From Bacteroidaceae bacterium (lineage in GTDB: Bacteria; Bacteroidota; Bacteroidia; Bacteroidales; Bacteroidaceae): a stretch of 64,000 bases of DNA. The stretch covers positions 1 to 64,000 of the forward strand of contig JAFYPU010000017.1 of the NCBI GenBank assembly GCA_017547385.1, in the 5' to 3' direction. The notes below the pieces were generated by a model. It was not told the DNA's origin. It ran no database searches and saw only the letters and a list, made by a program, of their open reading frames with translations. A program made the position numbers and the translations under genes. Each line of letters opens with the position of its first letter. Position 1 is the first letter of the stretch. This document shows positions 1 through 61,571 of the stretch, piece after piece.

Positions 1-14
1 AGAAATACAAAGAA

Positions 15-47
15 TTTGGAGTGTAAACTCAGATAGTATTATCTTTG
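15..47 (+). promoter_or_regulatory. Predicted Bacteroidota-type promoter at window start
   Basis: TTTG at 15-18 is followed after 21 nt by TATCTTTG at 40-47, an exact match to the TAnnTTTG -7 box. It points rightwards into a repeat region and lies about 350 bp before the next gene, which has its own nearer promoter. Its transcript is therefore unclear: a leader RNA or a non-coding transcript. It overlaps the 31-bp direct repeats listed next. Confidence 0.5.
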
Positions 48-144
48 CCAAGTGTCAACTGCTATAGGCATAAAAAAAAGAAGTGTAAACAGGTATAGTA
101 TTTAAAGTTTAAACTGTCAACTTTTTTCAGTACACCTCACTTTT
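21..144. repeat. Four direct repeats with 31-bp period (GTGTAAAC type)
   Basis: GTGTAAAC (21), GTGTCAAC (52), GTGTAAAC (83) and CTGTCAAC (114) begin exactly 31 bp apart, about three helical turns. Units 1-3 also share a TATAG/GATAG stretch some 4-6 nt later, and units 1 and 3 share TAGTATT. The repeats overlap and follow the promoter at 15-47, so they could be operators for a DNA-binding regulator. The regulator is not identifiable from this window. Confidence 0.6.
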
Positions 145-292
145 GTTTTATTATCATGCGCATGAGAAGAACTTATCATCGTGGTGAGAAGAACTTATCA
201 TGCGCATGAGAAGAACGTCTCATGCGCATGATAACAAATCCGGAAGGCGTTTCGCTGCCCCTTGCAGTGCCTTTGGTAGCATGCTCCGGTGC
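136..292. repeat. Phased 22-bp palindrome element, copy 1
   Basis: Three copies of the perfect palindrome TCATGCGCATGA (154-165, 198-209, 220-231) and one degenerate core, TCATCGTGGTGA (176-187), start at exact 22-bp steps. Linkers read mostly GAAGAACTTA. The phase continues with AAGGCGTT (244-251) and AGTGC (266-270). A degenerate CTCACT (136-141) sits where the other copies have AGCACT. The same architecture recurs near 14.6 kb and 24.8 kb. There are no unique spacers, so this is not CRISPR. Confidence 0.85.
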
Positions 293-7111: not shown

Positions 7112-7147
7112 ACTGTGCTTTCCGCCCTCGGGAAGCACAGTTTTTTT
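7112..7147 (+). terminator. Intrinsic terminator after rarA
   Basis: ACTGTGCTT (7112-7120) pairs with AAGCACAGT (7133-7141) and runs into seven T residues (7141-7147). The T-tract directly abuts the first core of the 21-bp array that follows. Confidence 0.88.
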
Positions 7148-7202
7148 GCAGTGCTTGCAGAAAATTCTGCAGTGCTTGCAGAAATTTTTACAAGCACTGC
7201 AG
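7146..7202. repeat. Three-unit 21-bp phased array, locus 1
   Basis: Three 15-bp cores begin at 7146, 7167 and 7188, exactly 21 bp apart. Core 2 is CTGCAGTGCTTGCAG; core 3 is its inverted form with two changes. Linkers are AAAATT/AAATTT. The same three-unit design recurs at about 35.8, 42.9, 53.9 and 61.3 kb. The array fills the space between the rarA terminator and the valS promoter. Confidence 0.85.
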
Positions 7203-7292
7203 ATTTGTTTAGCTCGCATTTGTGAGACTGAATTGTGATTTTCGGAGTTTTCTTCCTTCTTTTTCAACTTTCACAAAGCCTTTTCGCCGGAT

Positions 7293-14556: not shown

Positions 14557-14735
14557 AGCACTAAAACAGCTTTCGACGAGCACTTTCGTTTTATTATCAT
14601 GCGCATGAGAAGAACTTATCATCGTGGTGAGAAGAACTTATCATGCGCATGATAAGAACGTTTCATGCGCATGATAATAAATCAGAAAGGCCTTTCGATG
14701 CCTCCTAAAGTGCGTTTAGCTGCTTCTTCGAGTGC
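14557..14735. repeat. Phased 22-bp palindrome element, copy 2 (most complete)
   Basis: AGCACT occurs at 14557 and 14579 (22 bp apart). Four cores then start at 14597, 14619, 14641 and 14663: TCATGCGCATGA three times and TCATCGTGGTGA as the second. AAAGGCCTTT is centred 22 bp later (14686-14695), and AGTGC, the inverse of GCACT, occurs at 14709 and 14731 (22 bp apart). The element is roughly symmetrical, with about nine helically phased units. It lies between convergent genes. Confidence 0.88.
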
Positions 14736-24737: not shown

Positions 24738-24894
24738 AGCACTTTGACATCCATCGACAAGCACTTTGGGTGAATTATCATGCGCATGATACGTTCTTCT
24801 CATGCGCATGAAACGTTCTTATCATGCGCATGATAATTTCTTCTCATGCGCATGATAATTCATCGGCAAGGCATTTCGGCAGGTATTGGAGTGC
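24738..24894. repeat. Phased 22-bp palindrome element, copy 3
   Basis: AGCACT occurs at 24738 and 24760 (22 bp apart). Four perfect TCATGCGCATGA cores start at 24778, 24800, 24822 and 24844. AAGGCATT (24868-24875) and AGTGC (24890-24894) then sit at the same offsets as in copies 1 and 2. All four cores are perfect palindromes here. It lies between addA and the terminator of the next gene, so it does not overlap coding sequence. Confidence 0.88.
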
Positions 24895-35798: not shown

Positions 35799-35849
35799 GC
35801 CTTGTAGAATTTTCTAAACGCCTTGCAGAAATTTCTACACGCCTTGTAA
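35793..35849. repeat. Three-unit 21-bp phased array, locus 2
   Basis: Degenerate 15-bp cores begin at 35793, 35814 and 35835, exactly 21 bp apart. CTAAACGCCTTGCAG (35814) is the exact reverse complement of the middle core at 61348, which ties this locus to the family. The linkers are AATTTT and AAATTT. Confidence 0.75.
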
Positions 35850-35984
35850 ATTTTTGCACAACAAGTAGCGATTTTTAATGCAAAGTGTAAACTGAAAAGT
35901 GCCTCCGTTCCTTGCTTTTCGGCTTTTGTGTTGGTCAAATGTAACGTGTCAGTCCGTCGTTGTGCCTCTCATGAAGCACTGGCC

Positions 35985-42731: not shown

Positions 42732-42858
42732 GTGAAAACGGCACTTTATTTTTCAGGAAATCGTAACGTGTGTTCTATTAAGTATTTAGCTTTTCTTGGA
42801 AAGGTTGCTAGGGTCTGTGTCGTGCTTTGAATGATATACTATGGTATGGGTAGAAAAT

Positions 42859-42915
42859 CTGCAGTGCTTGCAGAATTTTCCGCAAGCACTGCAGAAATTT
42901 CTACAAGCACTGCGC
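42859..42915. repeat. Three-unit 21-bp phased array, locus 3
   Basis: Cores begin at 42859 (CTGCAGTGCTTGCAG), 42880 (CCGCAAGCACTGCAG) and 42901 (CTACAAGCACTGCGC), exactly 21 bp apart. The first core is inverted relative to the other two. The array lies between the SPOR promoter and the structured RNA region. Confidence 0.85.
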
Positions 42916-53690: not shown

Positions 53691-53850
53691 TGCTAAGTTT
53701 CATTGGATTTGTTGAAGAACTCTCTGGTTCCTATTTCTTTTGTTCTCATATCCTTTTTTGAAACAAGAGAAGGGAAAGTATTAGGTGTTAACGAGGTGAT
53801 AAACCATTTCAGACAACTTTCCCGATAACCTTGTCCTGATGCGCGTTTTT

Positions 53851-53907
53851 CCGCAAGCACTGCAGAAATTTCTGCGAGCACTGCGGAAAAATCTGCAAGC
53901 ACTGCAG
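53851..53907. repeat. Three-unit 21-bp phased array, locus 4
   Basis: Cores begin at 53851 (CCGCAAGCACTGCAG), 53872 (CTGCGAGCACTGCGG) and 53893 (CTGCAAGCACTGCAG), exactly 21 bp apart and all in the same orientation. Core 2 shows paired compensatory changes (CTGCG and CTGCGG ends). The array lies in the 495-bp gap before pheT; nothing gene-like is seen in that gap. Confidence 0.85.
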
Positions 53908-54117
53908 ATTTCCTTGCAAATGCCACCTCTTTTTACAAGAGGGTGGGGCGGCACGAAAAAGAACGTTTTTGCAGATGTTAAGAAGCATTGCAAAAGATTT
54001 TTATTCGTGCGATGATTTTTCAAAATGCGATGTGTGTTAACACGCTTTGTGGATACCTTTGTCCATCTCGGCACTCACGATTATTTAGACAAATTCCGGT
54101 GCGCTTCGCAGGGTGTT

Positions 54118-61130: not shown

Positions 61131-61326
61131 TCCAAATGACACAATATATTTATAAAGTGTGCATCGAGAGTGTGATTTTGGAAGAATGTTCTTCGTTTGT
61201 CGGCTCGCGCCATGTGTCCATTTGAAGGCTTTTCGTGGTGGCAGACTGCCTTTTCGGTTCATCGGGCGGGGCGGTCTGATAAATCTGAACATAAGGGGTG
61301 ATTTCAGCATGCCTTTCGGGAAAAAT

Positions 61327-61383
61327 CTGCAGTGCTTGCAGAATTTTCTGCAAGGCGTTTAGAAATTTCTGCAAGCACTGCAG
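61327..61383. repeat. Three-unit 21-bp phased array, locus 5
   Basis: Cores begin at 61327 (CTGCAGTGCTTGCAG), 61348 (CTGCAAGGCGTTTAG) and 61369 (CTGCAAGCACTGCAG), exactly 21 bp apart. The middle core is diverged. It lies in the 736-bp gap between nagB and the LRR gene, which otherwise holds only promoter elements. Confidence 0.85.
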
Positions 61384-61571
61384 ATTTTTGTCGATATAAT
61401 CGCCGTTTTTCCGACAAAATGTAAGTGATGCGAAGAGGCCTTTGTGATGGCTTCTGCCTGCCGGTAAATGGCATCACTGGCCGGCCTCATTTTTGTTGTT
61501 TTGTTTGGAATTTTTAATGAAACATTTCTTAAATGTTAAAAATGCAAATCGGTTGTAAAATAATGGACTTC

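What the first reader, a model, noticed from the sequence alone, without database searches (positions are those of the whole stretch)
14557..14735. Helically phased palindrome element: about nine units at 22-bp pitch, three copies in the window
At 14597, 14619, 14641 and 14663 the cores TCATGCGCATGA (one degenerate, TCATCGTGGTGA) start at exact 22-bp steps. The same order recurs at 136-292 and 24738-24894: an AGCACT-like box, four cores, an AAGGC-TT box 22 bp on, then AGTGC at a constant offset of 42.5 bp from the last core centre. The constant pitch (two helical turns), the central palindromes and the inverted flanks look like a multi-dimer protein-binding platform or a cruciform-forming element. 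All copies are intergenic and in the same orientation. I know of no named element with this layout.
Basis: seen in the sequence. Interest (0 to 1): 0.85.

Follow-up and report, generated by a model that had tools for sequence, protein, structure and literature searches.

The report
Phased DNA arrays matching HU-type proteins
Small clusters of mirror-symmetric DNA sites, spaced about two turns of the helix apart, are scattered between this gut bacterium's genes, and one copy sits beside the gene for a histone-like (HU-family) protein that probably binds all of them; similar gene-plus-array pairs, each with its own site sequence, occur in many Bacteroidota.

Summary
Three arrays in the window each have four palindromic cores (TCATGCGCATGA type) at exact 22-bp steps, with weaker boxes phased at 22 bp on both sides; the genome has 17 arrays with exact cores. 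They are not a lone oddity. One copy lies about 80 bp upstream of a HU-HIG gene (HU domain plus winged helix). Scanning 115 HU-HIG genes with pitch free (12-40 bp), all 45 strong arrays (z>=6) had pitch 21-23, although the palindromes differ widely. Eight further Bacteroides-group genes gave 22 bp in 8 of 8, six at z>=4. Pitch follows the protein tree. Of 29 hand-picked dispersed arrays, 22 best match an array beside a HU-HIG gene of their own genome. In a sister species core centres changed at four of six shared sites, including the HU-HIG gene's own array, while arms stayed. I infer that each HU-HIG paralogue binds its own phased palindrome, as operator at its gene and as platforms elsewhere. 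Binding is not shown. No prior description turned up in openly licensed papers (listings).

The parts
14580..14691 (+). family-A array of the finding: cores at 14597, 14619 (degenerate), 14641, 14663, pitch 22, with the innermost boxes GCACT (14580-14584) and AAGGC (14687-14691)
14558..14713 (+). extended platform including the second boxes GCACT (14558-14562) and AGTGC (14709-14713), at 22-bp steps
148..270 (+). family-A array: cores at 154, 176 (degenerate), 198, 220; boxes AAGGC 244-248 and AGTGC 266-270; its left flank runs into another dispersed repeat and the contig start
   Evidence: G008 array L307 matches it on the right flank
24739..24894 (-). family-A array: cores at 24778, 24800, 24822, 24844; boxes GCACT 24739-24743 and 24761-24765, AAGGC 24868-24872, AGTGC 24890-24894; spacers read in reverse relative to the other two
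   Evidence: G008 array L306 matches it on the right flank only
7142..7206 (.). family-B array, 21-bp pitch (CTGCAGTGCTTGCAG type)
   Evidence: best match is the array upstream of HU-HIG gene C11 of the same genome
35800..35864 (.). family-B array, 21-bp pitch
53847..53911 (.). family-B array, 21-bp pitch
61323..61387 (.). family-B array, 21-bp pitch

Best explanation
The element is a cis-acting DNA array bound by a HU-HIG protein, a DNA-binding protein with a HU domain and, in the long form, a C-terminal winged helix. Shown here: arrays of 3-5 (mostly 4) palindromes at a fixed pitch of 21, 22 or 23 bp; a copy just upstream of many HU-HIG genes; further copies with the same or a similar core between other genes. 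Inferred: dimers dock on each palindrome, all on one face of the helix because the pitch is about two turns, and bind cooperatively. At its own gene the array is an autoregulatory operator. At the dispersed sites the same protein builds a sequence-addressed nucleoprotein patch, for family A more likely structural or insulating than promoter-specific. Paralogues mostly carry different palindromes and so should not cross-talk (G010c and G010d are alike). In G000 the C27 protein is the predicted binder of the three arrays in the window.
Against: No binding, expression or occupancy data. 14 of 50 long and 37 of 53 short HU-HIG genes have no array at z>=4. Five of 15 G010 dispersed arrays match no collected HU-HIG array of that genome, and two of seven G008 arrays keep the old core. 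The 29 arrays were picked by hand and belong to a few families, so they are not independent. One search left out one shared array that is identical in both species (L310) and one with missing units (L305). Promoter evidence is weak: a TAnnTTTG box lies 0-40 bp upstream of the array in 10 of 37. Dispersed sites are only mildly skewed to convergent gaps: 11 of 24 family-A and G010 arrays placed (p=0.008), 11 of 28 with the window's placed family-B arrays, none of which is convergent (p=0.03). The array beside C11 is 433 bp from its gene.
Confidence: 0.8

Rival explanations
1. A MITE-type or other mobile repeat family, like BrickBuilt of P. gingivalis, spread by a transposase in trans; proximity to a HU gene is incidental.
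For: Dispersed, intergenic, many copies, inverted ends; some G000 copies share longer duplicated flanks (L016, L022, L025 and two window copies). Two of the six G008 arrays (L306, L307) match G000 on one flank only, and two more (L304, L308) have no counterpart among the G000 loci held.
Against: Three G008 arrays match G000 on both flanks (L309, L310, L311); core sequences differ widely between loci while the pitch stays; gene-adjacent arrays recur at unrelated HU-HIG loci; pitch tracks protein clade.
Confidence: 0.1
2. An RNA-level element: tandem hairpins in leaders or 3' ends of HU-HIG mRNAs (and of other transcripts) bound by the protein or acting in termination.
For: Each unit can be drawn as a stem with a 4-nt loop; arrays lie upstream or just downstream of HU-HIG genes; some have a promoter-like box before them.
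Against: Mismatches on the gene-sense strand show no G.U excess (G.T 76, A.C 63, p=0.31); constant two-turn pitch; family-A arrays in both orientations and some in convergent gaps; no Rfam match in the window.
Confidence: 0.1
3. Concerted change of the cores between G000 and G008 reflects gene conversion or restriction avoidance (loss of TGCGCA), not protein-site co-evolution.
For: The old core contains TGCGCA and mixed arrays exist; 2 of 6 shared arrays keep the old core.
Against: Arms are unchanged and spacers change little while centres change in separate units, so conversion tracts would have to be very short; many new centres share a form (TAnnGTGA), which mere avoidance does not predict.
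Confidence: 0.25
4. The arrays bind a different protein, and HU-HIG is a bystander recruited by the repeated DNA.
For: HU domains are generally weakly sequence-specific (recalled; the outline of PMC3969353 speaks of non-discriminatory binding by HU PG0121); the short HU-HIG form lacks the winged helix.
Against: Array pitch and side follow the HU-HIG clade and form; own-genome matching.
Confidence: 0.12

Closest known systems
BrickBuilt minisatellite/MITE of Porphyromonas gingivalis (PMC4596501; abstract, find passages and section 5 seen)
   Same: Tandem units of about two helical turns (23 nt), intergenic, 19 dispersed copies; BrickBuilt_14 abuts a PF00216 DNA-binding protein gene
   Different: 1 to 22.8 direct repeats, mostly with leader and/or tail, and IS5-like terminal repeats; here 3-5 palindromic units and linkage to HU-HIG
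HU-HIG (PF18291) / HU_rel (TIGR01201) proteins
   Same: The protein half of the module is a member
   Different: No cognate phased arrays found described for this family in the listings
Sequence-specific chromosome organisers (MatP/matS, Noc, SlmA, ParB/parS; recalled)
   Same: One DNA-binding protein with dispersed palindromic sites
   Different: Other protein folds (recalled); here sites are arrays of 3-5 at fixed pitch, with many paralogue-site pairs
P. gingivalis HU PG0121 and the 77-bp inverted repeat of the capsule locus (PMC3969353, abstract and outline seen)
   Same: HU-type gene beside an inverted repeat in a Bacteroidota species
   Different: One long inverted repeat; non-discriminatory DNA binding by its section title; described as similar to E. 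coli HU
REP/BIME elements and RAYTs (recalled; PMC3733652 listing only)
   Same: Dispersed intergenic palindromes
   Different: Here a fixed two-turn pitch and a HU-HIG gene; tags and RAYT genes were not searched for

Membership tests
HU-HIG protein family (gene beside the array) | PF18291 match above the curated cut-off | tested here: met
   C27 protein 95.1 bits, cut-off 26.2; residues 1-123
HU-HIG protein family (gene beside the array) | C-terminal winged helix-turn-helix in the long form | tested here: met
BrickBuilt MITE | 23-nt direct repeat with leader and tail | tested here: not met
   22-bp palindromic units, 3-5 copies, no leader or tail common to the non-redundant flanks beyond the phased boxes
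BrickBuilt MITE | Terminal inverted repeats such as GAGACCTTTGCA | tested here: not met
   Four published forms, up to 2 mismatches, within 150 bp of 17 arrays: 1 hit, beside L021 only
MITE in general | Target-site duplication or empty sites | tested here: inconclusive
   Six G008 arrays match G000 sites, three on both flanks; no empty site was sought across strains
CRISPR array | Identical repeats separated by unique spacers | tested here: not met
   The 10-bp spacers are themselves repeated between units and copies
REP/BIME with RAYT | Tetranucleotide foot and RAYT gene | not tested
   No RAYT or tag search was run
Known structured RNA | Rfam match above gathering score | tested here: not met
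   0 matches in the window
Sequence-specific nucleoid-associated protein with dispersed sites | Direct binding in vitro and occupancy in vivo | not testable with these tools
   Only co-occurrence, co-variation and own-genome matching tested

The most novel reading that the evidence does not exclude
Bacteroidota carry a widespread, fast-diversifying set of self-addressed chromatin modules: each HU-HIG protein has its own DNA address, a 3-5 unit palindrome array at a clade-linked pitch of 21, 22 or 23 bp beside its gene and dispersed through the genome, and protein and addresses shift specificity together. One genome can run several such layers, with mixed platforms (family-A cores flanked by boxes that resemble family B).
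Probability: 0.5. Interest if true: 0.93.

Novelty: new variant of a known kind. Interest (0 to 1): 0.86.

Why it matters
HU-family proteins are usually seen as weakly specific DNA benders (recalled). A HU-domain family whose members come with their own helically phased palindrome arrays would be a new class of sequence-addressed chromatin factor in major gut bacteria. Array sequence and pitch can be read straight from genomes, so protein-DNA specificity, its evolution and the role of helical phasing become directly testable, including in Bacteroides and Parabacteroides species that carry the module.

Tried and rejected
Considered and dropped: a lone window curiosity; chance palindromes; the exact core as a phylum-wide element: CATGCGCATG pairs with gaps of 4-30 bp occur in only 1 of 395 phylum genomes, the own one, and with up to 2 mismatches in 5 of 58 genus genomes, two of which (G070, G074) look spurious; other loci use other cores. 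Plasmid blastn with the element: none. Viral contigs: no core pair, no protein relative. RNA hairpin reading weakened by the mismatch count, for which I had dropped 5 of 56 arrays as near-copies, two of them (L170, L171) without good reason. The intergenic lag analysis gave a modest lag-21/22 signal; lag 21 is also the top lag of coding DNA. One search was my error: it used a 22-bp pitch for family B, which has 21. The 63-aa frame downstream of C27 (also in G008) was not pursued; one search printed the neighbours of other long HU-HIG genes, but its output was cut. Other pitches: L184 (19) and L179 (14) at z>=4; 13, 14, 15, 16 and 39 among G010 control genes; in the G010 scan 18 of 43 hits at score >=26 have other pitches, none of the 14 at >=30. 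One of those 14 (L277:2084) may be a coding repeat and one (L268:4081) is the array beside HU-HIG gene G010b. In one search I chose 29 dispersed arrays by hand, some G010 ones scored below 30. G000's HU-HIG gene C29 has no array (z 0.5, locus cut by a contig end); its three weaker HU matches were not scanned. One gene (L183) was misparsed to 6 aa and still counted among the 115. In one search the gene ends of two unannotated records were my estimates. The structure model is poor in its HU part, so only its C-terminal domain is used; no fold search covered the HU part.

Full report
Observation. The window holds three arrays of four 12-bp cores at exact 22-bp steps. A scan with free pitch (12-40 bp) found them as its top three hits, together with four arrays of another family (B) at 21 bp, and nothing in the shuffled sequence. 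The genome (G000, 2.35 Mb, 34 contigs, 86.5% complete) holds 50 exact cores at 18 places, 17 of them arrays; searches also list more degenerate arrays (for example C5:29496, C11:19549, C20:41619, C30:40588). The second unit is often degenerate at its centre (TCATCGTGGTGA, TCATCCGCATGA, TCATCAGCATGA), while TCAT/RTGA arms stay. The platform is thus about four cores plus up to three boxes each side. The copies are not all in one orientation: the 24.7-kb copy is reversed by its spacers.

Test without ascertainment on pitch. HU-HIG genes came from the own genome, samples of the phylum (90 genomes), one family on the Flavobacteriia side (92, 8 with a match at E<=1e-15), the window's genus (58, 48 with a match at E<=1e-15) and the class (325, 13 with a match at E<=1e-18), plus regions. 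I took those fetched as loci and, for the genus, mainly genes in frames of 200 aa or more, so the set is not a random sample. I scanned 500 bp upstream and 400 bp downstream of 115 of them for three phased palindromes with pitch free from 12 to 40 bp, each against 30 block shuffles. At z>=6 there are 45: pitch 22 in 31, 21 in 12, 23 in 2. At z>=4 there are 58: 39, 15 and 2, plus one at 19 and one at 14. The palindromes differ widely (e.g. CCACATATGTGG, GAACGATCGTTC, ACAACCTAGGTTGT, TTCGTCCGCGGACGAA). With proteins at least 70% identical removed (103 left), 36 of 50 genes of >=190 aa have an array at z>=4, all upstream; of 53 shorter genes 16 do, 12 downstream and 4 upstream. For 37 upstream arrays of long genes the median distance is 113 bp from the centre of the third scored unit to the start codon; unit numbers are 4 in 17, 3 in 14 and 5 in 6. 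Controls at z>=4 and 21-23 bp: generic HU genes 0 of 19, random G010 genes 8 of 60, HU-HIG neighbours 8 of 60 (they share intergenic DNA with the gene), random genes in the G000 loci 20 of 60, biased because those loci were fetched for their arrays. A check made afterwards on eight HU-HIG genes of Bacteroides, Phocaeicola and Parabacteroides records gave 22 bp as the best upstream pitch in 8 of 8, z>=4 in 6.

Protein and array go together. On a tree of 56 array-bearing HU-HIG proteins the pitch is clustered: 7 changes for the three pitches, as low in 0 of 200 shuffles. One 100/99-supported clade of 10 proteins, from eight genomes of the genus, has 21 bp throughout; five other 21-bp arrays lie elsewhere on the tree. 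In 335 kb of G010, another species of the genus, 14 arrays score >=30, with pitches 22 (8), 21 (3) and 23 (3), none in shuffles; at >=26, 25 of 43 have 21-23 bp. Three repeat the 23-bp array found upstream of HU-HIG gene G010a, core and spacer alike. Of 29 hand-picked dispersed arrays from G010 (15), G000 (7) and G008 (7), 22 find their best match among 56 gene-adjacent arrays of 34 genomes in their own genome (10, 7 and 5); about 1.6 are expected if genomes did not matter and arrays were independent, which they are not. The misses are five G010 arrays and two G008 arrays. A further MAG, found only through the DNA pattern, has 16 arrays with GACCCATGCGCATGGGTC-like units, of which exactly one is followed by a HU-HIG gene.

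Concerted change. G008 is a close relative in the genus. I compared eight G008 stretches with the G000 loci held. Six arrays match: L309, L310 and L311 on both flanks, L305 around the array and farther off, and L306 and L307 (the window's 24.7-kb and first copies) on the right flank only; L304 and L308 have no counterpart among the loci held. At four sites (L305, L306, L307, L311), among them the HU-HIG gene's own array, most centres changed from GCGC to forms such as TAGG, TATA and TATG; L309 and L310 keep the old cores, and L306 and L307 each retain an old unit. In four of the six aligned unit by unit (L306, L307, L309, L311; L310 is identical in both species and L305 lacks a matching unit number) the central 6 bp differ at 41 of 90 positions, the arms at 0 of 90, the spacers at 20 of 138, the flanks at 38 of 182. 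Dispersed G008 arrays carry the same new centres as its HU-HIG array. The two HU-HIG proteins are 90% identical and differ beside the presumed recognition helix. The simplest reading is that protein and sites shift together; gene conversion or restriction avoidance remain possible.

Mechanism, with its status. Shown: architecture, linkage, pitch restriction, own-genome matching, concerted centre change. Supported: DNA rather than RNA, since mismatches on the sense strand are balanced (G.T 76, A.C 63 in 51 arrays, p=0.31). Inferred: dimers on each palindrome, same helix face, cooperative binding, autoregulation. A TAnnTTTG box (the Bacteroidota -7 consensus, recalled) lies 0-40 bp before the array in 10 of 37 upstream arrays (10 boxes in 1,517 positions, against 4 in the next 2,664; p=0.01), and within the array-to-start gap in 8 of 37. 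Of 32 family-A and G010 arrays, 25 could be placed in a gap with a simple frame finder; 11 are convergent against about 22% of intergenic length. Without the one that is gene-adjacent it is 11 of 24 (p=0.008); adding the four placed family-B arrays of the window, none convergent, it is 11 of 28 (p=0.03). Promoter control is therefore unlikely to be the main role of family A, while family B may differ.

Comparison. BrickBuilt of P. gingivalis (abstract, find passages and section 5 seen) is the nearest named repeat but differs in unit, ends and copy number per array; that BrickBuilt_14 abuts a PF00216 gene is worth checking. HU PG0121 (abstract and outline) is described as similar to E. coli HU. 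The HU-HIG family was defined in work that I recall (Burroughs et al. 2017) but did not find in the library. No paper describing cognate arrays turned up in the listings, which cover only openly licensed papers.

Verdict. The array is most likely one address of a HU-HIG module. I rate it a new variant of a known kind (a DNA-binding protein with dispersed palindromic sites), far from any named member, pending a binding test.

Noticed in passing
window 7142-7206, 35800-35864, 53847-53911, 61323-61387 and by eye about 42857-42915: A second dispersed array family (B) with 21-bp pitch (CTGCAGTGCTTGCAG / CTGCAAGCACTGCAG), best matching the array 433 bp upstream of HU-HIG gene C11; by eye it shares CTTGCA/TGCAAG arms with the array of HU-HIG gene C17.
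   Followed up: partly
window 1-145; also L019, L023, L029 and L123: A separate dispersed repeat (AGTGTAAAC...AAAGTTTAAACTGTCAACTTTTTTCAGTACACCTCACT) abuts several arrays at contig ends and runs into their phased flank boxes.
   Followed up: no
L120, 3' of the C27 HU-HIG gene; L185 likewise: A conserved 63-aa open frame (MSDGNFNRNLLPYRNYQSG...) follows the HU-HIG gene in G000 and G008; possible partner protein.
   Followed up: no
G080: One genome of the genus carries 23 HU-HIG matches, many in frames of 140 aa with similar scores, suggesting expansion of the short form.
   Followed up: no
G010: L268, L269, L275, L277, L279, L280, L287: A 21-bp array family with a GGACTAGTTC...AATTAAA unit has no close match among the HU-HIG-adjacent arrays collected.
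   Followed up: no
L312, L313, L314, L316, L318: In these Bacteroides records the gene before the HU-HIG gene, on the opposite strand, is annotated VapE, DUF3874 or BT4734/BF3469 family; in Parabacteroides (L314) the HU-HIG gene lies between mutL and rpsL.
   Followed up: no
G008 L306 v window 24.7 kb: The sequence left of the array differs between the two species while the right side is colinear, so a rearrangement breakpoint may lie at or near the array.
   Followed up: no
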